Source: a virus
Reading direction: 5' to 3' (one strand)
Virus record (IMG/VR): IMGVR_UViG_3300049259_000169
Span: 1-62,693 of that record
Length of the DNA: 62,693 bases
Shown: positions 3,257-43,239 of the stretch, piece by piece
How positions within the stretch are numbered: the first letter of the stretch is position 1
How the letters are laid out: each line of letters begins with the position of its first letter
Program-made: the position numbers and the translations under genes
Notes under the pieces: model-generated
What the model saw: the letters and a program-made list of their open reading frames with translations, nothing else
What the model was told of the DNA's origin: nothing
The model's database searches: none

Positions 3257-5719
3257 TCACTCACTCCGCGCCAGCAGCGCGGCCGTCTCCTCGCGGTCGA
3301 GCCGGGCGACCAGCGCCTCGGTCTCTCGGCGATCGATCATCCGCTGTTCCACCGCCGCTGCAATGTCGGCGATGCTGCCACCAGCCCAGTCGCCCTGGTG
3401 CTCGCCCTGCACGACACCGGCCGCGACCAGCGAGGTCTGGAGGCCCGCCGCGATGTGGACCCGGGGGATCGGGTAGCCGGGCATGTTCACGCACAGTGCG
3501 GCCATCAGCTCGAGGTCCGGCTGGCCGGCGGGACGCCAGTCGCCGGAGAGCTTCGACGCGCGGGCAGCCACGACCATCTCCGGCGATGTGCCGGGACGGA
3601 CCCAGCCGGCGCACCAGATGCCGAACTCGTCGTCACCGACGGCGACGTCCGCCCAGGCGCTGCACGAGTTGTCGTAGTGCTCCATGGCTGCGCGCATCCC
3701 GAGCCGTACGTCGGCGTGCCCACCGCCGACGGTCAGTGAGCCACAGGGCACCATGCCCTCGGTGGTGAGCACCTGGCCGAGCAGGAAGTAGGCGTAGCCG
3801 GTCGAGGACATCGGAGCCTCGCGGCACACGCCCGGCATCCCGGTGTGACAGGTGCCCCGGGTGGCGATGTGGCCGAAGACCTGACCCTCCTCGGTGACCA
3901 TCAGCGGGGCACCCCAACCACCGGTGTTCGGGTTCTGCACCATCCGCGGGTCGTCGGCGCCGGTGAACTCCGGATCGCGGAACCACGCGGCCGGCGCGAC
4001 CAGCCCAGCACCCGAGGCGGCCAGCGCGATCTCCTCCCGCTCAACGAGCCGGAAGGTCTGGCGCAGGGAGTCGGGCATGTTGACGACCTCGGCCGCTAGC
4101 TCGGACGGAGCATGGCCGGGCCAGTAGCCCAGGGCGTCGTAGTGCCACTGGGCGCAGATCTGGTTGAGGTAGACCAGATCCTCGGGAGAGTTCTCGGCGA
4201 TCTCCTCGCCCACCTGGAGCCGACACCGGTTGAAGTCGCCGCCACCAGGAGCGCCCCAGCCGATCTTGACGTAGCCCTCCTCGCCGGGACGGGTCCAGTA
4301 GTCGTGGATGCGCTTGGTGTCCTCGGGGTTGGTGATCCAGCCGGGCCCACGGCCGAACTCGACGGCGGCGGAGGCGACGACGGCGACCTTCGGGTCGTCC
4401 CAGGCGGAGGTCTCGATCGACTCGCCGTCCATGAAGCCCTCGGGCGCCTCGCCCAGCGCCGACCATGCCTGGAAGAACGCCGGGATGGGACAGCCGGTGG
4501 CGCCGGAGACCCGCGGGTTCTCGTACCAGGTGGTCCCCTGCTCGTCGTCGAAGGCCATGGTGACGTCGTCGCCGTCGATGGAGACACCAAAGCGCGGGAA
4601 GTTCGCTGCGAGCCCGACGAACTGGTCGGCCTCGGTCGTCGGGAACAGTACGCCGGTGGCTCGGACCTCCGAGCCGACCCGGGCGGTGGCGTCGATGCGA
4701 CCGACCACCACCGAGCCCTGGTGTCCCGGGAGGTCTTCCTTCTGCCACCGGAACGGCAGGGGCAGCGGTCGCTGACGGCACGGGGTCATGCCGCGACCGT
4801 CGCCGGACCGGGTGTCCTCGACCAGCAGCACACCGTGCCAGGGGATGTAGCCGTCGCCGGCAGTGACCTCGGCGGAGGCCTCGGGTGCGGTCGGCTCCAT
4901 GTCGCCCTCCTGGGTGATGGTCGCGAACTGCGACCAGTCGGTTTCGTACACCTCGGGCCGCAGCGCGGGGCCGAGGTTCAGGATCTGGTCCAAAGTGAAC
5001 CACGCCGAGACGTCCGGGTTGCGGCGCTGCGGGTCGTCGGGGTTGACCAGCTCAGCTGCGGCGAGGTCCGGGTTCAGCTCGGGGAACGCGGTCGCCTCGA
5101 CCGGCGTGGTGAACACGTAGCCCTGGTAGATCCCGTCCGGCGAGCGCCAGCCACCGGTGACCTCGCCGGCCGGGACCGGCAGGCCGGTCTCCTCGCAGAA
5201 CTCGCGCCGCGCGGCCTCCTCCGCGGTCTCGCCATCCTCGAGTCCGCCACCCGGGAACTCCCAGGTGCCCATGACCTCCGGCGGGTCGTTCTGGTCCAGC
5301 GAACGCTGGATCATCAGCGCTCGGCCGGTGTCGGCGGCCTGCACCGCGAACCCGGCGTGAGTCACGCCGTTCTCCAGCACGTCGTCCGCCGACGTGATCA
5401 CGTCCTCGGGCGCGACACCGGCCAGCTCAGCCTCGTCTCGGTGGCTGATCCCCTGGCCGTCGTTGACATCGAAGGTGAGGGCCGCCCATGCCTCCGGCAG
5501 CTCGACGTCCGGGCACCCGAGCGCCGCTTTCCGCTTCCGAATGTGGGCCTTGGTCCTCGCCGGGTCCTTCGCGCGCCCGATGGCCCGGACCGCATTGCGT
5601 AGGTCGGAGCAGTTGGCGATCGGGTAGGAGCCATCGGGCATCGCGGCGCCAGCGCCTGCGGCCTTCTTGCGCTCCTCGGTGGATACGTCGCGGAAGTCGA
5701 TCATGCGGAACTCGGTCAT
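3257..5719 (-). CDS. fusion: NUDIX hydrolase plus capsid maturation protease
   Basis: 820 aa. ATG at 5719 overlaps the portal stop (ATGA). Three parts are visible. Residues ~25-75 contain a YPIANCSDLRNAV-type segment common in phage head proteases. Residues ~115-260 are a NUDIX domain with a complete box (G-x5-E-x7-REFCEETGL, about 158-180), a fold that hydrolyses nucleoside diphosphates linked to another moiety. From ~290 onwards is a prohead-protease-type region (WHGVLLVEDTRSGDGR, LPLPFRWQ, GSVVVGRID), followed by a long C-terminal extension. An internal ATG at 4900 has AGGAGG just upstream, so a separate 547-aa protease may also be made. The protease role rests on motif resemblance and position between portal and capsid genes. 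Confidence 0.75.
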   Translation of the reverse strand: MTEFRMIDFRDVSTEERKKAAGAGAAMPDGSYPIANCSDLRNAVRAIGRAKDPARTKAHIRKRKAALGCPDVELPEAWAALTFDVNDGQGISHRDEAELAGVAPEDVITSADDVLENGVTHAGFAVQAADTGRALMIQRSLDQNDPPEVMGTWEFPGGGLEDGETAEEAARREFCEETGLPVPAGEVTGGWRSPDGIYQGYVFTTPVEATAFPELNPDLAAAELVNPDDPQRRNPDVSAWFTLDQILNLGPALRPEVYETDWSQFATITQEGDMEPTAPEASAEVTAGDGYIPWHGVLLVEDTRSGDGRGMTPCRQRPLPLPFRWQKEDLPGHQGSVVVGRIDATARVGSEVRATGVLFPTTEADQFVGLAANFPRFGVSIDGDDVTMAFDDEQGTTWYENPRVSGATGCPIPAFFQAWSALGEAPEGFMDGESIETSAWDDPKVAVVASAAVEFGRGPGWITNPEDTKRIHDYWTRPGEEGYVKIGWGAPGGGDFNRCRLQVGEEIAENSPEDLVYLNQICAQWHYDALGYWPGHAPSELAAEVVNMPDSLRQTFRLVEREEIALAASGAGLVAPAAWFRDPEFTGADDPRMVQNPNTGGWGAPLMVTEEGQVFGHIATRGTCHTGMPGVCREAPMSSTGYAYFLLGQVLTTEGMVPCGSLTVGGGHADVRLGMRAAMEHYDNSCSAWADVAVGDDEFGIWCAGWVRPGTSPEMVVAARASKLSGDWRPAGQPDLELMAALCVNMPGYPIPRVHIAAGLQTSLVAAGVVQGEHQGDWAGGSIADIAAAVEQRMIDRRETEALVARLDREETAALLARSE

Positions 5720-7584
5720 GCCTCGATCTCCATCCGCTCGAGCCACTTCGTCATCTCACCCCGGTCGTGTGCGGCACCGGTGGCGACCAGGGCCGCCGTG
5801 TACCGCTGGAGGGTGGGCATCACGTCCGCCGGGTCAGCGAGGCCGTCGAGCATCTCGTTGGCCATCGGGAAGGCGTCGACCAGCAGCGCGGTCGCGTCCA
5901 GCTCGCCCGGCGCGTACGTGTGCACCGAGTAGGTGGCGACGCCCTCGGGCGGGCGGACCTTGCGCTGGATCAGCCGGTTCCCGACCCGGGACAGTGCCTG
6001 GAGGACCATCGCGTTGCACACCGGGATCAGGGACGCGACCCGCTCGGAGGGGTCCCGCGGCCGGATCGGGTGCTCCTCCAGTGACGGCGGAGGCGGAGCC
6101 TGGGTGGTCTCGGCGGTCGGGTCGCTGGCCGGCAGGTTCAGGCCGAACGCGTTGGCTGCGGCTGCGACCTGCTCAGGAGTGTTGGAGCCTCCGGCGATCT
6201 TGAGCATCAGCCAGGTCTTGAGCTCGTCGTCGCTCATCAGGTCGGTGGTGTTGAAGCCCGTCTCCCGGAGCAGGGCGACGCGGTTCAGCACGCCGAGCCC
6301 GTACAGCTCGAGTGCCTCCTTCGACCGGTCCGGGCGCAGCCGCAGCTTGGCGGTCGAGAACTGGACGACCATCTTGGTGCGGGGCACCTGGATGCGGATG
6401 TAGTCCACCGTGAAGGCGGAGACCACCAGCTCCATCGCGGGCTCGATGTGGATCTTGATCGCGGACTCTTCGATCTGCCACGCGCCCCAGTGGGACACGC
6501 CGTTCGAGGAGCCGCCGCCGGTGCCGCCGTTCGAGGCCATGCCCTCGGTGGACTCGTTGGGCAGGTCCATGCCGGACGCGAAGCGGTGTAGCGCGCCCTC
6601 GCGCATCTCCTGCGCCTTCTCGTCGAGCTCCGACCAGAAGGTGGTGACCTTCCCGACGTACTCGATCAGGTTGTCGGGGACCTGGATGATGATCGGCACC
6701 CGCGTAGAGGGGTGGCCCTGATTCCTGAGGGCGGTGGCGCCGGCCTCGGCGATCAGCCGCATCAGCTTCGTGGGCCCGTTCGCGGTCTCCGCCGCGGCCT
6801 TCTCCTCGTCGGTGGCTCCCGGGCCGAGGGGCATGTCCGGGAAGTCGATGCCCTCGGGAACCCACATGATGCCGGCGCCGGCCAGTCGCGAGATCAGCTG
6901 GGCCTGGATGTGCATGGTGAGCTTCTCGATCTCCGCGAGCACCGGAAGCATCGACTTGAACGGCGAGTCGGCGTGGTTGCGCAGGTACGGGTCGGCGCGC
7001 CAGATCCGAATGACGACGTCGAACTCACCGAGCACCAGATCGGGGGCGCCCTCGAACTTGAGGGTCCAGCTCCGGCCCTGGGTGTTGACCTCGAGCGGCG
7101 AGTAGACGCCCCAGATCATCGATCCGTCGCCGGGGGTCGACTGGGCGGCGGCCGCGAGACCGGTCGGCGTCCGGTCGGCGACGTAGCCGATGACGAACAG
7201 CTCGCCACCCACGGTGAGGTGGACGCCGATGCCGTGCAGCATCTCGGACTGGTTGGCCTTGCCGACGAAGACGTCGTCGAGGAACGCGGCCTCGGGAGAG
7301 TCGTACGACGGCTCCCACTTCGGGACCTTGGTCTTCTCGTCGATGACCGGGTTGGCCATGAACATCTCGCACTTGGACAGCGAGTTCCCGTAATACTGGG
7401 CGGCGTACCTGGCCTCGCCGATGATCGAGTAGAAGCGGTAGCACTCGGCCTGCCAGCCCTTGTCGGTCCCGTAGACCAGTGGGGCCTGGGCGCCGGTGTA
7501 GTACGCGGAGGACGCGACGAGCGCCCGGTTGGGGTGCTGGGGGCGGGTCGAGCGAGACGCCCGGGTCCGGGTCCGACCTGCCAT
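5716..7584 (-). CDS. portal protein
   Basis: 622 aa. Forms the ring at the DNA-entry vertex of the head. Length and composition fit SPP1/HK97-type portals: an Arg-rich N-terminus, a helical central stem region, and a C-terminal part rich in Pro/Thr. It lies in the canonical order terminase, portal, protease. Identified mainly by position, size and overall family resemblance; no single motif is decisive. Confidence 0.8.
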   Translation of the reverse strand: MAGRTRTRASRSTRPQHPNRALVASSAYYTGAQAPLVYGTDKGWQAECYRFYSIIGEARYAAQYYGNSLSKCEMFMANPVIDEKTKVPKWEPSYDSPEAAFLDDVFVGKANQSEMLHGIGVHLTVGGELFVIGYVADRTPTGLAAAAQSTPGDGSMIWGVYSPLEVNTQGRSWTLKFEGAPDLVLGEFDVVIRIWRADPYLRNHADSPFKSMLPVLAEIEKLTMHIQAQLISRLAGAGIMWVPEGIDFPDMPLGPGATDEEKAAAETANGPTKLMRLIAEAGATALRNQGHPSTRVPIIIQVPDNLIEYVGKVTTFWSELDEKAQEMREGALHRFASGMDLPNESTEGMASNGGTGGGSSNGVSHWGAWQIEESAIKIHIEPAMELVVSAFTVDYIRIQVPRTKMVVQFSTAKLRLRPDRSKEALELYGLGVLNRVALLRETGFNTTDLMSDDELKTWLMLKIAGGSNTPEQVAAAANAFGLNLPASDPTAETTQAPPPPSLEEHPIRPRDPSERVASLIPVCNAMVLQALSRVGNRLIQRKVRPPEGVATYSVHTYAPGELDATALLVDAFPMANEMLDGLADPADVMPTLQRYTAALVATGAAHDRGEMTKWLERMEIEA

Positions 7585-24869: not shown

Positions 24870-25384
24870 CGGAGACGGCGAGTGATGCGGTGCTCGAGCA
24901 GGTGGCCGGCCAGACCTACCACCAGCAGATGCTCAACGCCTATTGGCAGGCGGGCGAGCAGATCACCCTGAACGCGTTGGTGATGCTGTGCCTGGCGGCG
25001 AGGCGGTTCGACGGGCGGGTCAAGTACGTGATCCTCGACGACTCGGACCAGGGCGACTGGCAGTGCGTGGCGGGTCTGTGCGCCGCGCTGCCGATGCGGC
25101 CGGGCGACTACTCGGAGGTCTCGGACCTCGACGAGGACGACGAGTTCGACGACGAGGGCTGGGCGTCGTCGGTCGACGACCGGACCGAGCACTCATGGGG
25201 TCCGTACCTGGTGCTCTCGGAGGCGATGCCGCACTGGAAGTTCCTCGACGTGGACCGAGTACTGGCCGAGGTGCACCTGCCGTGGCGCCCGGTTACTCAG
25301 GTAACCCAGAAGTTCACGGACTTGCCCACCGGATTCCACGACAACAAACGCGAGCGTGACGCCAACACCGTCGGAGGTGCCTGA
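24866..25384 (+). CDS. hypothetical protein upstream of SSB
   Basis: 172 aa. Helical N-terminal half ([33 protein letters not shown]), an acidic loop ([12 protein letters not shown]) and a beta end. Overlaps the SSB start by one base. Palindrome site 7 lies in its last part, coding VTQVTQ. Function unknown. Confidence 0.6.
25291..25306. promoter_or_regulatory. palindrome site 7 (inside a gene)
   Basis: GGTTACTCAGGTAACC, identical to site 3. It lies 78 bases before the SSB start. Confidence 0.8.
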
Positions 25385-25878
25385 TGTCGGGTGAGACCGT
25401 GGTCTGCGTGGTCGGCAATCTGGTCGACGATCCGGAGCTGAGGTTCACGCCGAGCGGTGCGGCGGTGTCGAACTTCCGGATCGCGTCGACTCCGCGGATC
25501 TTCGACAGGCAGTCCAACGAGTGGCGGGATGGCGACCCGCTGTTCTTGTCGTGCTCGGTCTGGCGGCAAGCGGCGGAGAACGTGGCGGAGTCGCTGACCC
25601 GGGGGATGCGGGTGATCGTGCAGGGCCGGCTCAAGCAACGTTCCTACGAGACCCGTGACGGTGAGAAGCGGACGGTGGTGGAGCTCGACGTGGACGAGGT
25701 CGGCCCGTCGCTGGCGTTCGCGAGCGCAAAGGTGACCAAGACGTCTCGTCAGGCTGGCGGGGGCGGGGGTTCACGGCCCCAGCAGGGTTCCGGTGGGAGC
25801 CAGGCAGGTGGTGACCCCTGGAGTGCGCCAGCGGGCGGCGCTGATCCGTGGAGTGGTGGCGATGAGCCTCCCTTCTGA
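25384..25878 (+). CDS. ssb: single-stranded DNA-binding protein
   Basis: 164 aa. OB-fold with the classic motifs [45 protein letters not shown] and [17 protein letters not shown] Gly/Gln-rich linker leads to the acidic-hydrophobic tip GGDEPPF, which in bacterial SSBs docks partner proteins. Protects single-stranded DNA during replication and recombination. One of two OB-fold genes here. Confidence 0.95.
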
Positions 25879-28544: not shown

Positions 28545-29780
28545 ATGACGATCGCAACGACGGCCCGGAACGCCGGGCTCCAGGATCTGGTCACGATGCT
28601 GCGCGAGCAGCACGTGCGCAAGGTCGACATGGTGGTCCCGGCCAGCGCGCTGCGCTCGGTGGACGGCCAGGTGCAGGTGTCCGGTGTGGAACCGATCCTG
28701 CTCGACGACGGGGTGCAGGAGGCCAACGGCCTCTACGCCCCCACGCAGGTCTTCGACGAGGGGTTGAGCGACAAGCTCGACATCCCGTTGAAGTACGTGC
28801 GCCGGTTGCGGGAGTCGCGACCGGACCTGATGGACGCCAACGTGAACGGCTGGCTGCGCGGCCGGGGCGCGACGATGGAGAAGGGTCCCGACTGGGACGG
28901 GGCGAACCCCGGCGCCGGGTGGGTGGAGAAGACGGTCGCCATCCCCGGCGACTCGCGCTCGTTCATGCTGCGCACCTTCCGGAGTGACGACGACTCCGGC
29001 ATCGCCCGCGCGCTGCTGAGCAACTCCTACTCGATCGTCGACAACCTCGACGTGCTGATGGAGGCGCTCGGTGCGGTGCGCGAGGCAGGTGTGGAGGCGT
29101 ACGTCGACCGGGCGAACCTGACCGAGCGCCGGATGTCGGTGGAGATCGTGGTGCCGGAGATCGAGGTGCTGGCCACCGAGCTGCTGCGCGGGTACCGCAA
29201 CCCGTTCGGCTCGGACTTCGAGCGGTGGCGCGGGATCGCGGACCGGGAGGGCCTGGGCTACGGCGGCGAGGAGCCGGTCGTGTGGGCCGGGTTCAAGATC
29301 ACCAACTCCGAGACCGGTGGTGGTGCGTTCACGATCACCCCGCAGGCCAAGGTCAAGGTGTGCGCGAACGGGCTGACCCTGTCCAACGACGTGGTCCGGG
29401 CGGTGCACCTGGGCGGCCGGCTCGAGACCGGGGTGGTGAACTGGTCGGCGGAGACGCAGCGCCAGAACCTCGAGCTGATCAAGGCCAAGACCCGGGACGC
29501 GGTGGCGACGTTCATCGACATCGACTACATGACGGCGGCCATCGCGAAGATCACCGAGAAGGCGATGGTCGAGGTCGGCTCGGACGAGGTCAAGGTGATC
29601 ACCAAGAGGGCGAAGTTCACCGAGCCCGAGCAGGACATGATCCTCGACTTCTTCATCCGGGGTGGGCAGACCACCCGGGGTGGGATCATGCAGGCGGTGA
29701 CCGCGGCCAGCCAGATGGTCGACGACGCCGACCAGGCGCACGACATGGAGGCCAAGGCGCTGGCGGTGCTGACGGCATGA
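28545..29780 (+). CDS. DUF932-type phage/plasmid protein
   Basis: 411 aa. Central sequence matches the DUF932 family (phage/plasmid-like protein): KLDIPLKYVRRLRE, FRSDDDSGIARALLSNSYSI, VWAGFKITNSETGGGAFTI, and VCANGLTLSNDVVRAVHLGG. Many phages and plasmids carry it near replication genes, but its activity is unknown. The leader CCGAACGAACGGAGAGAACG plus a half palindrome (GTAACCC at 28510) precedes the ATG. Confidence 0.8.
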   Translation: MTIATTARNAGLQDLVTMLREQHVRKVDMVVPASALRSVDGQVQVSGVEPILLDDGVQEANGLYAPTQVFDEGLSDKLDIPLKYVRRLRESRPDLMDANVNGWLRGRGATMEKGPDWDGANPGAGWVEKTVAIPGDSRSFMLRTFRSDDDSGIARALLSNSYSIVDNLDVLMEALGAVREAGVEAYVDRANLTERRMSVEIVVPEIEVLATELLRGYRNPFGSDFERWRGIADREGLGYGGEEPVVWAGFKITNSETGGGAFTITPQAKVKVCANGLTLSNDVVRAVHLGGRLETGVVNWSAETQRQNLELIKAKTRDAVATFIDIDYMTAAIAKITEKAMVEVGSDEVKVITKRAKFTEPEQDMILDFFIRGGQTTRGGIMQAVTAASQMVDDADQAHDMEAKALAVLTA

Positions 29781-30679: not shown

Positions 30680-30880
30680 ATGACCACGGACAGAGAGGCG
30701 CTGGCGCGAGACGTCATCGAGCGCATGGATGTAGCCCGGCTACGACTGGATGAGGCCGGGATCCTGATGGACCGAGCGAAGGCCGTGCTGATCGACACCA
30801 TCGCCGAGCACAACGCGGCGCTGGAGGCGCTGGCGGCGATCACCGACGAGGCCGCCACACTGCTGGAGGAGGCACCGTGA
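30680..30880 (+). CDS. small helical protein
   Basis: 66 aa, one or two long helices (VIERMDVARLRLDEAGILMD, VLIDTIAEHNAALEALAAIT). Overlaps the initiator gene start. Function unknown. Confidence 0.55.
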   Translation: MTTDREALARDVIERMDVARLRLDEAGILMDRAKAVLIDTIAEHNAALEALAAITDEAATLLEEAP

Positions 30881-31683
30881 GCGGCCGGCCGCGGCGAGCA
30901 TTCGGCATCGTGTCCAAGGTGGTGATGCGGACGCCCGGCATCCCGCTGGGGAGCAAGGCGCTGTACGCGTTGCTCTGCTCGTACGCCGATGACGACGGCT
31001 GCTGCCATCCGTCGAACGAGACGCTGGCGGCCGACCTGGGGGTGTCCGAGTCCTCGGTCGCGAGGGGTCTGCGGACGCTGGCGGACTGGAAGCTGATCGT
31101 CCGGGAGGACCGGTTCGTCGAGAACCGGCAGACCACTTCGGTCACTCGGATCACTGATCTGGACGTCGCTGAGATGACTACCCGCCCTGTCACTGACGAC
31201 ACCCCCGAGGGTGGCATGGGTGACAACCCCGGGGGTGTCACTGGTGACAACCAGAACAACACCACCATGAACGGAACCAGTACGAACACACCGTCACCTG
31301 CCGGTGACGAAGGGTCGCAGGACGGACTCTCCAGCGAGGACGAGCTGTTCGAGGACTTCTGGACCCACTACCCGAGGAAGGTCTCGAAGAAGGATGCGAG
31401 GGCGGCGTTCGCGAAGGCGTTGAAGGCCGTCGACTACCTCACCATCCGGGCCGGTCTCGTCGGTGCGATCAAGGCGTGGCGAGCGGAGGGCAAGGTCGTG
31501 GTCGAGAAGGTCGGCGACGACCTCAAGGTCAAGGCCGAGGTCGGCGAACTGGGCAAGGGCATTCCCCATGCTGCGACCTGGCTCAACGGGGAGCGGTGGA
31601 ATGACGAGCACCCGGAGGCCAAGGTGGCCGCCGGACAGAACGGAGAGGATGAGAACGCATGGATGACGCGGAGAGCGGACTGA
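30877..31683 (+). CDS. helix-turn-helix replication initiator-like protein
   Basis: 268 aa, GTG start. Residues ~10-75 form a winged helix-turn-helix (GSKALYALLCSYADDDGCC, LAADLGVSESSVARGLRTL, WKLIVRED) as in phage and plasmid replication initiators. A disordered Thr/Asp/Asn linker follows. The C-terminal module (FWTHYPRKVSKKDARAAFAK ... ATWLNGERW) is typical of phage replisome-loading proteins. Likely binds the origin and recruits the helicase encoded 1.5 kb downstream. Confidence 0.8.
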   Translation: MSGRPRRAFGIVSKVVMRTPGIPLGSKALYALLCSYADDDGCCHPSNETLAADLGVSESSVARGLRTLADWKLIVREDRFVENRQTTSVTRITDLDVAEMTTRPVTDDTPEGGMGDNPGGVTGDNQNNTTMNGTSTNTPSPAGDEGSQDGLSSEDELFEDFWTHYPRKVSKKDARAAFAKALKAVDYLTIRAGLVGAIKAWRAEGKVVVEKVGDDLKVKAEVGELGKGIPHAATWLNGERWNDEHPEAKVAAGQNGEDENAWMTRRAD

Positions 31684-32858: not shown

Positions 32859-33149
32859 GTGGGCAAGAAGGACGAGGTCCCCAAGCCGGAGGGCTTCGAC
32901 ACCCACCCGCTGGTGGTGTGCATCGACGGACCGAAGGCGGCGTCCTGGTACTTCGAGGACTACGGGTCGGGATCGTGGGCCGAGCAGGTGCGGCTGGCGG
33001 CGCTGGGCCAGACGCCCCGTTCCACGATCCTCGGCTACGTCGACTCGGGGAAGTCGGTGCCGCACCCGCGGTGGCCGGAGGTCAGTGGCAAGGCGCTGGT
33101 GTGGCGTCCCGAGCAGCAGGGAGGAGGAGCGAGTGGATCAAACCCATGA
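32859..33149 (+). CDS. hypothetical protein before helicase
   Basis: 96 aa, GTG start. Small alpha/beta protein (VVCIDGPKAASWYFEDYG) resembling short proteins often placed before phage helicases. Overlaps the helicase start by 17 bases. Function unknown. Confidence 0.6.
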   Translation: MGKKDEVPKPEGFDTHPLVVCIDGPKAASWYFEDYGSGSWAEQVRLAALGQTPRSTILGYVDSGKSVPHPRWPEVSGKALVWRPEQQGGGASGSNP

Positions 33150-34380
33150 CGGCGCGGCGGAGAAGGCGGTACTGGCCTGCTGCCTGGGCTCGAAGCTGGC
33201 TCGCGACAGGACCCGCGCCGCACTGTCCGGCGGCGACTTCTACGAACCGCTGCACGAGGAGGTGTGGGACGCCATGAACCGGCTCGACCGTCAGGACATG
33301 GCGGTCGACGGGCCGGCGCTGCTGGCGGTGGTTCCGCAGCACAATCGTCAGCGGGCGGGCCAGTTGCTGGTCGACCTGGTCACCTACCCGGTGTCCGCGG
33401 AGTCGGTGACCACGCACTGCGCCCACGTCCGGCAGTGGGCACAGAAGCGGCGACTGTGGGGGGAGACGCTGCGGGCTCAGCAGGAGATCATGCGCGACAA
33501 CGTCGACATCGTCGGCCTCGCGGCCTCCACGGCGGCGAGGTTCGCGGCCGTCCGAGATGCGGGTGGTGTCGACGACGACATCGAGGCGATGACGCTCGAT
33601 GAGATCATGCTCGAGGTGCCGGAGGACCCGGACTGGGTCATTCCCGGATTCCTGGAACGTGGCGATCGGTTTCTCTTGACCGCCGCCGAGGGCGCGGGCA
33701 AGTCGCACTGGACCCGGCAGGTAGCGATCATGGCGTCCGCGGGCCTCGACCCGTTCCGGCCATGGCGGCACATCCGACCGGTGCGCGGGATGATCATCGA
33801 CTTCGAGAACAGCAAGCGGCAGATCCGGCGCCGGACCGAGGCGACGTACGGCTACGCGGTCAACCACGGCCGCGGAGCAGCGGGCCTGGCGACGGTGCTG
33901 AACATGGGTCGGTCCGACATCACCCAGGACCGGGTGCTGAACAAGATCCACCGCGAGCTCGATGCCTGCCAGCCGGAGGTGCTGGCCATCGGGCCGCTCT
34001 ACAAGATGTCCCCGAAGGCGTTGCAGACCGACGACGAGGCGGGACCGGTGCTGGCAGCACTGGACACCATCCGGGAGCGAGGGATCGCGATCCTGATCGA
34101 GGCGCACGCGGGCCACGTGATGGGCGCCGGACGGAGGCGGGACCTGCGGCCGCGCGGTTCGGCGGCGCTGATGGGCTGGCCGGAGTTCGGCTACGGCATG
34201 ACCCGGGTGGGGGAGAAGTCCGCGGTGCTGACGGCGTGGCGCGGCGACCGTGACGAGCGGACCTTCCCGATGGCGCTGGTGGAGAACGGATGGGGGTGGG
34301 AGGAGGAGCGGGCCACGACCGTGCAGGACGTGTGGCGACCGCGACAGGACTGGACCGATCTGGCGTACGACGAGGAGTGA
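33133..34380 (+). CDS. replicative helicase, DnaB-N plus RepA-type ATPase
   Basis: 415 aa from GTG 33133, which has GGAGGAGCGA upstream. Residues 1-120 match the DnaB N-terminal helical domain (EKAVLACCLGS, FYEPLHEEVWDAM). The ATPase has Walker A AAEGAGKSHW (about 184-193), Walker B MIIDFEN (~218) and a further VLAIGPLYKM strand. The core is closer to RepA/AAA_25 than to full DnaB. Unwinds DNA at the phage fork; works with the initiator and SSB. Confidence 0.8.
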   Translation: MDQTHDGAAEKAVLACCLGSKLARDRTRAALSGGDFYEPLHEEVWDAMNRLDRQDMAVDGPALLAVVPQHNRQRAGQLLVDLVTYPVSAESVTTHCAHVRQWAQKRRLWGETLRAQQEIMRDNVDIVGLAASTAARFAAVRDAGGVDDDIEAMTLDEIMLEVPEDPDWVIPGFLERGDRFLLTAAEGAGKSHWTRQVAIMASAGLDPFRPWRHIRPVRGMIIDFENSKRQIRRRTEATYGYAVNHGRGAAGLATVLNMGRSDITQDRVLNKIHRELDACQPEVLAIGPLYKMSPKALQTDDEAGPVLAALDTIRERGIAILIEAHAGHVMGAGRRRDLRPRGSAALMGWPEFGYGMTRVGEKSAVLTAWRGDRDERTFPMALVENGWGWEEERATTVQDVWRPRQDWTDLAYDEE

Positions 34381-36544: not shown

Positions 36545-37306
36545 ATGACGACGACTGAAACGGTTCCTGCGGCCGCCGCGGTGCCCACGGTGTACGAGGC
36601 GTGGGCACGGGTGATGCAGCAGGCGCTGGCGCTCGGCAAGGGACAGCAGTACGACGGCGGCGAGGGCGGTGGCCGGTTCCGCTTTCGCGGCATCGACGAC
36701 GTGATGAACCTCGTGGGCCCGATCCTTCGACTCGAGGGAGTCTCGGTGATCCCGTCGGTGCGGACCGCGAACTACCGGGACGTGATGACCCGGGGCAACA
36801 AGCCGTCGCGGGAGGTGACGGTGCTGGTGGACTATACGATCACCGGTCCGGCCGGCGACACCATGTTCGGCTCCGCCCCCGGCGAGTCGATGGACACCGG
36901 CGACAAGGGCACTGCCAAGGCGATGTCGGTGGCGTTCCGGGTGTTCCTCCTCCAGGCCCTGTGCCTGCCCACCGACGAGCCCGACCCTGACTCGGAGGTC
37001 TTCCAGCGCGCTGCCGGCCCGACCCCGGAGCAGCAGGCCCAGAAGGTCGCCGACGGCCTGCCCGAGTCGGTGTCGTTCGCGCAGGTCGACGGGGTGAAGC
37101 GCTGGGCCGCTGAGCGTGGTCTGCTCGACGTCCCGGTGACCGACCCGGACGGCAACCGACTCGCGCCGCTGCTGGTCCTGCTGAACGCGAAGCTCGATGA
37201 GCACGCAGCCAACGAGCCGGCGATGCAGCAGGCCCGGCAGGCCAACGTGGACAAGGCCCTCGGCGGGGGCGGCGAGCCGACCGCCGATCACACGGAGGCG
37301 AACTGA
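36545..37306 (+). CDS. erf: ERF-family single-strand annealing protein
   Basis: 253 aa. ERF core: VYEAWARVMQQALALGKGQQ, FRFRGIDDVMNLVGPILR, VTVLVDYTITGPAG, GESMDTGDKGTAKAMSVAFR. Anneals complementary single strands in phage recombination. The C-terminal ~80 residues form a separate helical domain with a Gly/Glu-rich end. Works with the Cas4/RecB-like nuclease 1.3 kb downstream and the SSBs. Confidence 0.85.
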   Translation: MTTTETVPAAAAVPTVYEAWARVMQQALALGKGQQYDGGEGGGRFRFRGIDDVMNLVGPILRLEGVSVIPSVRTANYRDVMTRGNKPSREVTVLVDYTITGPAGDTMFGSAPGESMDTGDKGTAKAMSVAFRVFLLQALCLPTDEPDPDSEVFQRAAGPTPEQQAQKVADGLPESVSFAQVDGVKRWAAERGLLDVPVTDPDGNRLAPLLVLLNAKLDEHAANEPAMQQARQANVDKALGGGGEPTADHTEAN

Positions 37307-38604: not shown

Positions 38605-40676
38605 TGGCGGTCGAGATCTGCCTGCCGTGCAGGAACGAGCGGCACCTCGACTGCGTGCTGACGGTCGAGGAGAACGAGGCTCCGTGTGACTGTTCGCACG
38701 GGGTGATGTCGGAGGACGAGCACCTGCTGGCCAAGCAGATCTACGAGGCGATCCAGCAGCACGCGGCCGACACGGACCGGTCGCGGCACGCGGCCGAGTT
38801 CAAGCTCGGCATCTCCGACGTCGGGTACTGCCCGGAGCGGCTGCGCCGGACCCTCGACAATCAGGTCCCGGAGGGCACCGACATGCTGGCGGCGGTCATC
38901 GGACAGGCGGTCGGCAAGGAGGTGGAGGAGGCGCTCAAGGCCCAGCTGTGGCCCGACGCGATCCTCCAGGCGGAGGTGATGCTGCGGCTACGCATCCAGG
39001 GCAAGGTCTACAACCTGCCCGGCCACCCGGACATCATCCGGCCGGACTGGGGGATCCTCGACGGAAAGGGTCTCGCGCTCAACACGCTCCTGCCCGTCCC
39101 GAACGGCTGGACCGCGATGGGCGACCTCCGGGTGGGCGATGAGGTCTACGACCGTGACGGAGCGCGGACCCGCGTGACGTTCAAGTCGGAGGTCAAGAAC
39201 ATCGACTGTTGGCGGGTCACGTTCCGTACCGGCGAGCAGGTGATCTGCGACGACGAGCACCGGTGGGTCGTGGTTGACCGCAAGGGTCACGAGCGCGTCG
39301 AGACCGCGTCGTGGATCGCCGAACAGCGGCAGGCGGGTCGCGCGGTCACGGTGCCCGTGCTCGCGGACGCCTGCGCGGGCGACCCCGGGGTGCCGGCGTT
39401 GGATCCATGGCTGCTGGGCTACTGGGTCGGCAATGGCCAGCGCTGCATGCCCCGGGTGACCGCGAACCTCGCGGACGCTGAGGAGGTCCACCGGCGCGTG
39501 ACGAGGCTCGGGTGGCGGGCGACTGTGACCCCCGACAAGAGAGGCTCTCAGGCCGCGTTGCTCACCATCCAGACGAACGAGGTGAAGCGGCGTGCCGATG
39601 GCCGAATGGTACGCAGTAACCAGTTCCGCCTGGAGCTGGAGGCGCTGGGCATCTTCGAGACTAAGGGCTTCCCGGTCCAGTACCTCCGGGCATCGCCCTC
39701 CGACCGGAAGATGCTGCTGCGGGGACTCATGGACTCCGACGGAACCTGGAACAAGGCACGTCGTCGGGTGTCGTTCACATCCACGACCGAGTCGGTAGCG
39801 CTCGGGCTCGCCGAGCTGGCGCGATCGCTCGGCGAGCGAGTTCAGTACAACGCCCACCTCGCGCACGGCTACGGGAAAGAGGTCCAGGCGCATGTCGTCG
39901 AGTGGACGCCGTCGTTCAATCCGTTCGCGCTGACCAGGAAGGGATCGAAGGTGCAGGTTCGTGAGGCTCAGCGCCACGCCATCGCGTCGGTCGAGCGGGT
40001 CGAGTCGGTACCAACTCAGTGCATCGCGGTGGACTCGCCGACCAAGACCTATCTGTGTTCGGAGGGGTGGATCCCGACCCACAACACCGACTTCGGCCTG
40101 TCCGCGATCGAGAGGGACGGCCCGTCGTTCCAGCAGCAGTTCCAGCGGCACGCCTATGGGCTGGCCGCGTTCGAGGCCGGCCACTTCCCGGACCTCGCAC
40201 TGGAGGACGTCATGGTCGGGAACTTCTGGCTCGACCGGGGCGCCGTGGAGAAGCGGGTCCACGTCCAGTTCGAATCCTTCAACCCGGAGATCATCGACCG
40301 TGGGATCGACGAGCTCGAGTCGGTGGTCTACGCCTACCTGAACGAAGAGGAAGCGGAGAAGCGGCCCCCTCGGGAGGTTTGCCGGGTGACCTGTGGCTAC
40401 TTCGCGAAGTGCCGGGAGTGGGAGACTGACGTGTCGGGCCTGCTCGACGACCCGGACGCGGTGTCGGCGATCCTCGCGTACGTCGAGGGCCGCAACCTGA
40501 CCACCCGCGGTGACAAGCTCAAGCGGGAGGCAAAGGCGAAGCTGGACGGGATCTCTGGGTCCACGGGAGAGTGGCTGCTGCGGCAGACGTGGACGAACCC
40601 GACCGAGGTCCCAGCGTCGAAGCGCAAGGGCCACTACCGGATCGACATCAAGCCGGTGCGGAAGGTCGACGGATGA
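38604..40676 (+). CDS. Cas4/RecB-type nuclease interrupted by a class 3 intein
   Basis: 690 aa precursor, about 353 aa after splicing. The N-terminus has a Cys cluster (CLPCRNERHLDC ... CDC). GHPDII and ILDGK are the PD-(D/E)xK nuclease residues, with the intein right after the Lys motif. Cys in GYCPERLRR and the late CRVTCGYFAKCREW likely hold an iron-sulfur cluster as in Cas4/AddB. Predicted to resect DNA ends and feed ERF. The intein runs from A158 to N494. Confidence 0.85.
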   Translation: MAVEICLPCRNERHLDCVLTVEENEAPCDCSHGVMSEDEHLLAKQIYEAIQQHAADTDRSRHAAEFKLGISDVGYCPERLRRTLDNQVPEGTDMLAAVIGQAVGKEVEEALKAQLWPDAILQAEVMLRLRIQGKVYNLPGHPDIIRPDWGILDGKGLALNTLLPVPNGWTAMGDLRVGDEVYDRDGARTRVTFKSEVKNIDCWRVTFRTGEQVICDDEHRWVVVDRKGHERVETASWIAEQRQAGRAVTVPVLADACAGDPGVPALDPWLLGYWVGNGQRCMPRVTANLADAEEVHRRVTRLGWRATVTPDKRGSQAALLTIQTNEVKRRADGRMVRSNQFRLELEALGIFETKGFPVQYLRASPSDRKMLLRGLMDSDGTWNKARRRVSFTSTTESVALGLAELARSLGERVQYNAHLAHGYGKEVQAHVVEWTPSFNPFALTRKGSKVQVREAQRHAIASVERVESVPTQCIAVDSPTKTYLCSEGWIPTHNTDFGLSAIERDGPSFQQQFQRHAYGLAAFEAGHFPDLALEDVMVGNFWLDRGAVEKRVHVQFESFNPEIIDRGIDELESVVYAYLNEEEAEKRPPREVCRVTCGYFAKCREWETDVSGLLDDPDAVSAILAYVEGRNLTTRGDKLKREAKAKLDGISGSTGEWLLRQTWTNPTEVPASKRKGHYRIDIKPVRKVDG
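39075..40085 (+). mobile_element. class 3 intein with LAGLIDADG homing endonuclease
   Basis: 337 residues. It starts with Ala (A158), not Cys or Ser, has Trp in the block-B segment DDEHRW (W221), a block-F Cys in PTQCIAVDSP (C473), and Thr as the first residue after the THN end. This W-C-T set defines class 3 inteins. LLGYWVGNG (270-278) and LLRGLMDSDG (371-380) are the two LAGLIDADG helices; the first has lost its usual acidic residue, the second keeps Asp. It sits in the nuclease active-site motif. Confidence 0.85.
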
Positions 40677-41502: not shown

Positions 41503-41520
41503 GAACGAACGGAGAACACC

Positions 41521-42444
41521 ATGAAGGAGCGTTTCATCACGAGACGGTTCAAACCGTCCACTCTCGAGATCATCGAGCGGGCGGTCGAGATCTGTGAGGA
41601 CTACCGGGCTCAGGGCTACAGCCTGACGCTCCGGCAGCTGTACTACCGGTTCGTCAGCACGATGCCCGACTTCGAGAACACCAGCCGCAGCTACAAGAAC
41701 CTGGGCTCGGCGATCAACGATGCCCGACTGGCGGGACTCATGGACTGGTCGCACATCGAGGACCGCACCCGCAGTGTCGGCGGCGGCTACTACCCGGCCA
41801 CCACACCGGGCGACTCGATCGCTCGGTACGCCTCGTACTACACCGAGCCGTTGTGGAAGGGACAGGACTACCGGCCCGAGGTGTGGGTCGAGAAGGAGGC
41901 GCTGGCCGACGTGGTCCGCCAAGCCGCCGGCGGATACCGGGTGCCGACGTTCGCATGCCGAGGCTACGTGTCGCAGACCGCGATGTACGACGCCGCCAAG
42001 CGGTTCGAGCGGCGCCGCGACCAGGGACTGATGCCGGTGGTGATCCACCTGGGCGACCACGACCCGTCGGGCATCGACATGACCCGGGACATTCGTGACC
42101 GGCTCGAGCAGATGTCGTGGGGCGATGTCGAGGTGCGGCGCATCGCGCTGAACATGGATCAGATCCGCCAGTACGACCCGCCACCGGACCCGGCCAAGGT
42201 CACCGACTCCCGCGCACTCGGCTACATCGCCACCTACGGCGACTCGTCATGGGAGCTGGACGCCCTGGAGCCCCGGGTCCTGACGGCGCTGATCGAGTCG
42301 GAGATCGAGTCGGTCCTCGACCGCGACCTGTTCGACAGCCAGGTTCTGCTGGAGGAGGAGCGGCGGGCGCAGATCGTGGAGATCGCCGAACGGTACGACG
42401 ACCTGCGCGCGAACTGGGACGACATCCTGGGCGTGATCAGCTGA
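41521..42444 (+). CDS. topoisomerase VI-A/Spo11-like protein (Mini-A type)
   Basis: 307 aa. The N-terminal winged-helix carries SLTLRQLYYRFVS, matching the RxxYY catalytic motif of Topo VI subunit A and Spo11 (Y42 the likely nucleophile). A Toprim domain follows: E124 in WVEKEALADV and D179/D181 in HLGDHDPSGID. No B (GHKL ATPase) subunit is encoded nearby. Stand-alone A-like proteins of this size have been described as Mini-A. It may make protein-linked double-strand breaks or nicks; activity unknown. Has its own palindrome site and leader. Confidence 0.75.
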   Translation: MKERFITRRFKPSTLEIIERAVEICEDYRAQGYSLTLRQLYYRFVSTMPDFENTSRSYKNLGSAINDARLAGLMDWSHIEDRTRSVGGGYYPATTPGDSIARYASYYTEPLWKGQDYRPEVWVEKEALADVVRQAAGGYRVPTFACRGYVSQTAMYDAAKRFERRRDQGLMPVVIHLGDHDPSGIDMTRDIRDRLEQMSWGDVEVRRIALNMDQIRQYDPPPDPAKVTDSRALGYIATYGDSSWELDALEPRVLTALIESEIESVLDRDLFDSQVLLEEERRAQIVEIAERYDDLRANWDDILGVIS

Positions 42445-42722
42445 TGGCCGCCATGAGGAAGGTTGAGACGGCGAGGGAGTTCCGTGACGTCCTGAACGAG
42501 CGACAGGTGCGGATCACGTTCGGCTTCGCGTTCGGAGTCAAGGGCACCATGCTGACGGCCCATCTGGAGGTCGGCGAGATCGGTCCCGGCGGTCGTCAGC
42601 GGTGGACGAAGGTCACGCCCATGCTGGTCGAACGCGACAGCGGAGGCCGCGCAGACCTGCTCCAGCAGATGGTCGACGTCCTGACAATGGATCAGGCAGA
42701 GGAGGTGGAGAGCGATGAGTGA
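42444..42722 (+). CDS. hypothetical protein
   Basis: 92 aa. One-base overlap with the Topo VI-A-like gene. Strand-rich first half (VRITFGFAFGVKGTMLTAHL), acidic helix at the end. Could be a partner of the upstream protein, on proximity only. Confidence 0.55.
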   Translation: MAAMRKVETAREFRDVLNERQVRITFGFAFGVKGTMLTAHLEVGEIGPGGRQRWTKVTPMLVERDSGGRADLLQQMVDVLTMDQAEEVESDE

Positions 42723-43239
42723 GCACGCGACGGAGTACGTCGTGAACAACCGCACCGGCGAGGTTCACGAGGCCAACTGCCCACGAGTGAAGGTGATCGC
42801 GTCGAAGTCGCCATGGGATCCGGCCAAGGCGGCACTGACGCCCGGGGTGTACGCGGACCGAATCTGCCTGGTCGACGGACTGCCACTGCGGGGCGGAGTC
42901 TCTCGACCCACGACCAGCGAGGTGATCCGCCAGATCTCGGACGCAGTCGACAACTCCTACGCGGTCAAGCTCGATCCGGAAGCCCACATGTGGCGACGAC
43001 TGATGAAGATGGTCGAGGAGTCGGGCGAGGTGGTGACTGCGATCCTGGGTCAGCTCGGCGAGAACCCCCGGAAGGGGCAGACGCACTCGCTGGCGGATAT
43101 CGAGTACGAGCTGCTGGACGTGGCGCTCGCCGCCCTCGGGGCGCGGGCCTTCCTGGGTGATCCCGAACCGGCCGAGAGCCTCGACCGGCATGCTCGGCTG
43201 GTGTGGGAGCGGCTCTCGGCGGCGATCGCCGATGGCTGA
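42715..43239 (+). CDS. MazG-like nucleotide pyrophosphohydrolase
   Basis: 174 aa. The N-terminal ~60 residues contain VHEANCPRVKVIA, a short Cys module. From ~residue 85 the MazG pattern appears: WRRLMKMVEESGEVVTAI and later DIEYELLDVALAAL, giving the E-E-x2-E and E-x2-D metal residues. MazG enzymes hydrolyse NTPs to NMPs; phage forms may clean the pool or lower alarmone levels. Confidence 0.75.
   Translation: MSEHATEYVVNNRTGEVHEANCPRVKVIASKSPWDPAKAALTPGVYADRICLVDGLPLRGGVSRPTTSEVIRQISDAVDNSYAVKLDPEAHMWRRLMKMVEESGEVVTAILGQLGENPRKGQTHSLADIEYELLDVALAALGARAFLGDPEPAESLDRHARLVWERLSAAIADG

What the first reader, a model, noticed from the sequence alone, without database searches (positions are those of the whole stretch)
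41521..42444. Phage-encoded Spo11/Topo VI-A-like protein without a B subunit
It has the RxxYY-type motif and complete Toprim acidic residues, so catalysis looks intact. No GHKL partner is seen. Such stand-alone A proteins (Mini-A) have no known function. Placement with ERF, exonuclease, SSBs and a MazG-like protein suggests programmed DNA breaks that start recombination-driven replication or destroy host DNA.
Basis: partly seen in the sequence, partly recalled or inferred. Interest (0 to 1): 0.8.

Follow-up and report, generated by a model that had tools for sequence, protein, structure and literature searches.

The report
Phage Mini-A, a stand-alone Spo11-like DNA cutter
This phage gene encodes a complete, conserved DNA-cutting enzyme of the family that starts meiotic recombination (Spo11/topoisomerase VI-A) but has no ATPase partner; it is a new example of the known but functionally untested Mini-A family, and what it does for the phage is still open.

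Summary
ORF 41521-42444 (+, 307 aa) is a real gene and a member of the known Mini-A family: phrog_6247, E 6e-99, and 45% identity to the Pseudomonas phage NP1 protein that a review shows as its Mini-A example. The predicted structure (pLDDT 94) matches only topoisomerase VI-A chains in the PDB at E<0.001. Six residues of the Topo VI-A/Spo11 active site and its regulatory clasp (R38, Y42, E124, D179, D181, E245) are invariant in 158 aligned relatives; the first tyrosine, Y41, is not. No GHKL ATPase was found in this record or in 50 other Mini-A records, and no neighbour gene is conserved as a partner. Purified mouse SPO11 cuts DNA without its partner, so lone cleavage is plausible. The proposed role is weaker. 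The exonuclease/Mini-A/MazG order recurs in close relatives, but recognisable annealing recombinases occur in only 12 of 50 Mini-A records, and helicases are the commonest neighbours. Carriage by prophages and small plasmids argues against host-DNA destruction. Verdict: new member of a known kind, function unsolved; sharp tests (E245Q, Y42F, E124A) are available.

The parts
41521..42444 (+). Mini-A gene (Topo VI-A/Spo11-like winged helix + Toprim), 307 aa
   Evidence: phrog_6247 E 6e-99; AF2 pLDDT 94.2, Foldseek to Topo VI-A 1d3y E 1.9e-5
41511..41514 (+). GGAG, likely ribosome binding site of Mini-A
   Evidence: read directly; inference
41632..41646 (+). codons R38-Y42 (RQLYY): clasp Arg and catalytic Tyr, equivalent to M. 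mazei Top6A R102/Y106 and mouse SPO11 Y138
   Evidence: invariant R38 and Y42 in 158/158, Y41 replaced by H or F in 4; residue roles from PMC13040014 and PMC11922746
41890..41892 (+). codon E124, Toprim metal-binding Glu (Top6A E202, SPO11 E224)
   Evidence: 158/158
42055..42063 (+). codons D179-D181, Toprim DxD (Top6A D254/D256, SPO11 D277/D279)
   Evidence: 158/158
42253..42255 (+). codon E245 in WELDAL, proposed equivalent of the Top6A clasp E342 (ExxAL/F motif)
   Evidence: 158/158; E342 and Exx[AS][FL] conserved in 42 Topo VI-A; equivalence inferred from motif and order
42443..42722 (+). small ORF overlapping the Mini-A stop (TGATG), no family match
42715..43239 (+). MazG-like pyrophosphatase (weak match)
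   Evidence: PRA-PH E 0.0025, below cut-off; same order as Microbacterium phage Fizzles
38604..40676 (+). RecB/Cas4-like exonuclease interrupted by an intein
   Evidence: phrog_35747 E 2e-29 and phrog_1674 for the exteins
39069..40085 (+). intein (residues 156-494) with LAGLIDADG homing domain, inserted after the DGK motif
   Evidence: Hom_end E 1.7e-6, LAGLIDADG_3 E 2.5e-5; junction LDGK|TDFGLS
36545..37306 (+). ERF-family single-strand annealing protein
   Evidence: PF04404 E 9e-13; phrog_155
33085..34380 (+). DnaB-like/AAA_25 replicative helicase
   Evidence: AAA_25 E 4e-21, DnaB N-terminal domain E 9e-11
30877..31683 (+). replication initiation protein
   Evidence: phrog_270 E 2e-39
25384..25878 (+). 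single-strand DNA binding protein
   Evidence: phrog_44 E 3e-47

Best explanation
The protein is a Mini-A: a Topo VI-A/Spo11-type DNA transesterase that works without a B subunit. Two copies are expected to pair on DNA. Y42 of each would attack one strand, with the Toprim metal site (E124, D179, D181) of the partner copy completing the active site, giving a double-strand break (or a nick) with the enzyme left on the 5' ends. R38 and E245 probably form the same salt-bridge clasp that restrains cleavage in Topo VI. With no GHKL ATPase there is no ATP-gated strand passage, so the output is cleavage, with or without resealing. In the phage it most likely acts on replicating phage DNA as part of the early replication/recombination operon, making breaks that are resected and repaired. 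Shown here: family, fold, residue conservation, lack of GHKL, operon position. Inferred: dimerisation, chemistry, clasp. Least certain: the target DNA and the use made of the break.
For: PHROG match and 45% identity over 97% to NP1 Mini-A (NP1 named as Mini-A in PMC7614492). Model pLDDT 94.2, pTM 0.85; the only PDB matches below 1e-3 are Topo VI-A chains, over about 306 columns, prob 1.00. Six active-site and clasp residues invariant in 158/158 Mini-A, their counterparts in 42/42 Topo VI-A. Purifying selection: dN/dS 0.04-0.35. No HATPase_c in 50 Mini-A records. Mouse SPO11 cuts without any partner by hybrid dimer active sites (PMC11922746). Co-directional with both neighbours in most loci: 133/159 and 132/159. 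Exonuclease/Mini-A/MazG order shared by the window, L002 and phage Fizzles. Helicases are the commonest neighbouring families.
Against: Whole-protein TM-score to Topo VI-A is only 0.36, so fold order and domain content match but not domain orientation. Sequence profile comparison with Topo VI-A is not significant by itself (hhalign probability under 3%, E 0.02-0.03). Annealing recombinases are found in only 12/50 Mini-A records and PDDEXK exonucleases in 9/50, so coupling to phage recombination is not general. No biochemistry of any Mini-A was found in the papers read.
Confidence: 0.5

Rival explanations
1. Reversible topoisomerase: the Mini-A dimer nicks or cuts and reseals, relaxing or unlinking replicating phage DNA without ATP, instead of leaving programmed breaks.
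For: Neighbours are often helicases and replication genes. SPO11 can reseal nicks and make topoisomers (PMC11922746). Some topo VIII enzymes relax or cleave DNA without ATP (PMC7614492).
Against: No strand-passage ATPase in any of 50 records; bacterial hosts already have gyrase and topo IV (established knowledge).
Confidence: 0.22
2. Weapon: cuts host chromosome or competing plasmids and phages, like the MksG/JetD branch of Topo VI-A relatives.
For: MksG, a Topo VI-A-like Toprim nuclease, degrades plasmids (PMC10123090). Mini-A is patchily distributed and its neighbours vary, as for an accessory gene.
Against: Found in chromosomal prophages, a temperate phage and small plasmids; no PADLOC match; keeps the winged-helix Tyr that MksG lacks.
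Confidence: 0.12
3. Initiator or end-maker: cleavage at a specific phage site gives a 3'-OH primer and a 5' protein-capped end for replication, as HUH initiators or terminal proteins do.
For: The expected chemistry leaves a free 3'-OH and a 5' protein (inference from SPO11); Mini-A is also present on small plasmids.
Against: The window already has a replication initiator and a DnaB-like helicase; no conserved site was sought or found.
Confidence: 0.08
4. Catalytically idle remnant or mere DNA-binding protein.
For: Some phage records annotate it only as 'DNA binding protein'.
Against: Six catalytic/clasp residues invariant in 158/158; dN/dS well below 1.
Confidence: 0.04

Closest known systems
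Mini-A proteins of phages, archaeal viruses and plasmids (Takahashi et al. 2020, cited in PMC8185306, PMC7614492 and PMC11302465; example Pseudomonas phage NP1; phrog_6247)
   Same: 45% identity over 97% to NP1, same length, motifs, no B subunit, mobile-element host
   Different: High-GC phage whose terminase relatives infect Actinomycetes; sits beside an intein-bearing exonuclease; no difference in kind
Topoisomerase VI A subunit (M. jannaschii 1d3y, M. mazei 9o0g)
   Same: Winged helix then Toprim; R, Y, E, D, D, E in the same order with R-Y and D-D spacing identical
   Different: About 64 fewer residues before the catalytic Tyr; no B subunit; insignificant sequence profile score
Spo11
   Same: Same catalytic set; cleavage by the A-type subunit alone is shown for mouse SPO11
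   Different: Eukaryotic, has a B-like partner in vivo; no direct phylogenetic tie tested
Topoisomerase VIII
   Same: Type IIB, carried by mobile elements
   Different: Topo VIII carries the ATPase in the same enzyme; here only the A-like part, 307 aa
MksG/JetD nucleases of MksBEFG/Wadjet
   Same: Topo VI-A-like Toprim, no ATPase of its own
   Different: They lack the winged-helix Tyr and act with SMC partners; Mini-A keeps the Tyr in 158/158

Membership tests
Mini-A | Sequence relationship to known Mini-A (NP1, archaeal plasmid 'Topo mini-A') | tested here: met
   45% to NP1, E 9e-68; 30% to archaeal plasmid Topo Mini-A, E 4e-23; phrog_6247
Mini-A | Truncated Topo VI-A: winged helix with Tyr plus Toprim, no ATPase domain | tested here: met
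   Model, fold search, residues
Mini-A | Carried by a mobile element or virus, with no B subunit gene | tested here: met
   Virus record; HATPase_c absent here and in 50 relatives. The record is linear and may be incomplete
Topoisomerase VI | A2B2 holoenzyme with GHKL B subunit | tested here: not met
   No GHKL; no conserved partner gene
Topoisomerase VI | TP6A_N profile match | tested here: inconclusive
   Window 0; 5 of 120 relatives match weakly, best E 0.024
Topoisomerase VIII | A-like and ATPase (B-like) parts in one enzyme | tested here: not met
   307 aa, no GHKL
Spo11 | Makes 5'-linked double-strand breaks to start recombination | not testable with these tools
   Needs biochemistry; residues compatible
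MksG/JetD | Toprim nuclease without winged-helix catalytic Tyr, in an SMC operon | tested here: not met
   Y42 invariant; no PADLOC match to the protein

The most novel reading that the evidence does not exclude
Mini-A is a self-sufficient prokaryotic counterpart of Spo11: a partner-free A-type dimer, held in check by the R38-E245 clasp, with which phages and plasmids make programmed double-strand breaks in their own DNA. Programmed Spo11-type breakage would then be widespread outside meiosis and would not need a B subunit.
Probability: 0.3. Interest if true: 0.8.

Novelty: new member of a known kind. Interest (0 to 1): 0.45.

Why it matters
Mini-A has been listed since 2020 without a known function. 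The evidence here makes it testable: it is catalytically intact across a very wide family, has no ATPase partner in any of 50 records, and keeps the newly described Topo VI clasp, so specific mutants have specific predicted outcomes. If it cuts alone, it is a small model for Spo11-type cleavage and a new way for phages to start recombination or replication.

Tried and rejected
First AF2 model from 16 sequences (pLDDT 83) gave no PDB match below 1e-3 and was replaced by a 120-sequence model. The BFVD search gave one partial, unnamed match and nothing useful. A profile search of PDB sequences with 120 Mini-A found nothing; hhalign against Topo VI-A was insignificant as a score, though with alignment confidence relaxed it put Y42, E124 and D179/D181 on the right residues. 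A conserved partner gene next to Mini-A was sought by clustering and PHROG scans and not found: the largest neighbour cluster is in 15 of 161 loci. A general tie to annealing recombinases or exonucleases was tested and not found; no matched control set of Mini-A-free phages was run, so enrichment was not measured. Holliday-junction resolvase replacement is unlikely: phages Fizzles and BKO1-3 carry a resolvase as well. The original Mini-A paper (10.1093/nargab/lqz021) is not held, so its definitions come from later reviews.

Full report
What was checked. The ORF 41521-42444 on the + strand is real: 307 aa, ATG start preceded by GGAG, strongly coding third positions, and a stop that overlaps the next start codon (TGATG). 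The window is an IMG/VR virus record of 62,693 bases, linear, with no end repeats, so it may or may not be a full genome. Relatives of its terminase are phages of Gordonia, Microbacterium, Arthrobacter and Curtobacterium among others.

Identity. Pfam, NCBIfam, PADLOC and the PDB sequence file give nothing for the protein alone, but PHROG 6247, 'DNA topoisomerase', matches over its whole length at E 6e-99. Relatives occur in 76 phage records, including Pseudomonas phage NP1 at 45% identity. A review draws NP1 as the example Mini-A and describes Mini-A as truncated homologues of Top6A in archaeoviruses and bacteriophages (PMC7614492). Two archaeal plasmids that annotate 'Topo mini-A' also match. 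Scans found at least 568 viral stretches and 186 genome stretches encoding relatives, across many bacterial phyla and some archaeal assemblies.

Fold. With 120 aligned relatives AlphaFold2 gives pLDDT 94.2 and pTM 0.85. In the PDB only Topo VI-A chains score below E 0.001: 1d3y at 1.9e-5, probability 1.00, about 306 columns, and M. mazei cryo-EM chains. The whole-chain TM-score is only 0.36 with rmsd 17.6, so the match is in the order and content of domains, and the model's domain orientation differs from the solved dimers. A sequence-profile comparison with Topo VI-A is not significant; the family tie to Topo VI-A rests on fold plus active-site residues.

Active site. In M. mazei Top6A the catalytic Tyr is Y106, the metal residues are E202, D254, D256, and R102 with E342 form a clasp that restrains cleavage (PMC13040014). 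In mouse SPO11 the second of two tyrosines, Y138, is catalytic, with E224, D277 and D279 (PMC11922746). In 42 Topo VI-A sequences collected here R102, Y106, E202, D254, D256 and E342 are invariant. In 158 Mini-A sequences R38, Y42, E124, D179, D181 and E245 are invariant, while Y41 is H or F in four. R-to-Y spacing (4) and D-to-D spacing (2) are identical, and E245 sits in ExxAL as E342 sits in Exx[AS][FL]. The E245=E342 equation is inferred from motif and order, not from a superposition. E124 and D179/D181 lie in the search patterns, so their invariance is partly selected; the other three do not. The Tyr is at position 42, against 106 in Top6A, so about 64 N-terminal residues are missing. Pairwise dN/dS is 0.04-0.35 (dS is uncertain in high-GC genes).

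No partner. HATPase_c is absent from this record and from 50 other Mini-A records, with 14 of 14 controls positive. The genes before and after Mini-A in 161 representative loci are mostly co-directional (133/159 and 132/159) and often within 30 bases (74 and 70), so it is normally in an operon, but no neighbour family recurs: the largest cluster is in 15 of 161 loci. The commonest identifiable neighbours are DNA helicases (phrog_16, phrog_62, phrog_1967); integrases also recur.

Context in this phage. Early genes on the + strand include a replication initiator, a DnaB-like helicase, an HNH protein, ERF, a RecB/Cas4-like exonuclease split by an intein, Mini-A, a small ORF and a MazG-like gene. 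The exonuclease/Mini-A/MazG order recurs in the nearest relative L002 (73% identical Mini-A) and in Microbacterium phage Fizzles, where a recombinase and a RuvC-like resolvase are also close. In other phages Mini-A lies by ThyX, DNA polymerase, terminase or lysis genes.

Does it go with recombination? Across 50 Mini-A records ERF was found in 2, RecT in 5, Sak4-type AAA_24 over cut-off in 5 (12 records in all), PDDEXK_1 in 9. Some records are fragments and other recombinase families were not tested, so these are lower bounds, but a general dependence on a phage annealing protein is not supported. Conversely 321 phage records hold relatives of this ERF, mostly Mycobacterium phages, while Mycobacterium is not among the ten commonest names of the Mini-A list.

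Mechanism. Mouse SPO11 cleaves DNA without any partner, through dimer-shared active sites, leaves protein on 5' ends, and can reseal nicks (PMC11922746). Some topo VIII enzymes cleave or relax DNA without ATP (PMC7614492). A partner-free Mini-A dimer that cuts DNA is therefore chemically plausible; I give about 0.85 to Y42-dependent cleavage. What the break is for is open. I favour breaks in replicating phage DNA that feed repair and replication, then ATP-free topology control, then a weapon role, then site-specific initiation. Carriage by chromosomal prophages, a Listeria phage with an excisionase, and small plasmids argues against wholesale host-DNA destruction.

Novelty. An already named family, so a new member of a known kind. 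What is added: the clasp Glu/Arg conservation, the family-wide lack of GHKL, the lack of any fixed partner gene, and evidence that the recombination neighbourhood is a feature of some lineages only.

Noticed in passing
window 39069-40085: A 339-residue intein with a LAGLIDADG homing domain interrupts the RecB/Cas4-like exonuclease directly after its DGK motif; it starts GLALNTLLP with no Cys/Ser/Thr at position 1 and ends THN|T, which suggests a class 3 intein (class from general knowledge).
   Followed up: partly
window 3257-5746 (-): An 829-aa head protein matches portal (phrog_859), head maturation protease (phrog_18402) and a NUDIX hydrolase (phrog_1198, residues 132-256) in separate parts, an unusual fusion.
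   Followed up: no
plasmid hits H63-H99: Distant Mini-A relatives on Streptomyces/Kitasatospora plasmids lie closer to record ends than uniform placement predicts (median 0.16 of length, P about 0.02); record ends may be arbitrary and records related, so this is only a lead about linear-plasmid telomeres.
   Followed up: partly
L018 (phage NP1), L019 (phage Pam3): Some Mini-A phages also carry genes for hypermodified bases (queuosine-type genes in NP1, aGPT-Pplase and Nmad5 in Pam3); whether Mini-A goes with modified DNA was not tested.
   Followed up: no
window 28545-29780 (+): A 411-aa protein of PHROG 1362, unknown function (E 1e-82), sits in the early region without any Pfam match.
   Followed up: no
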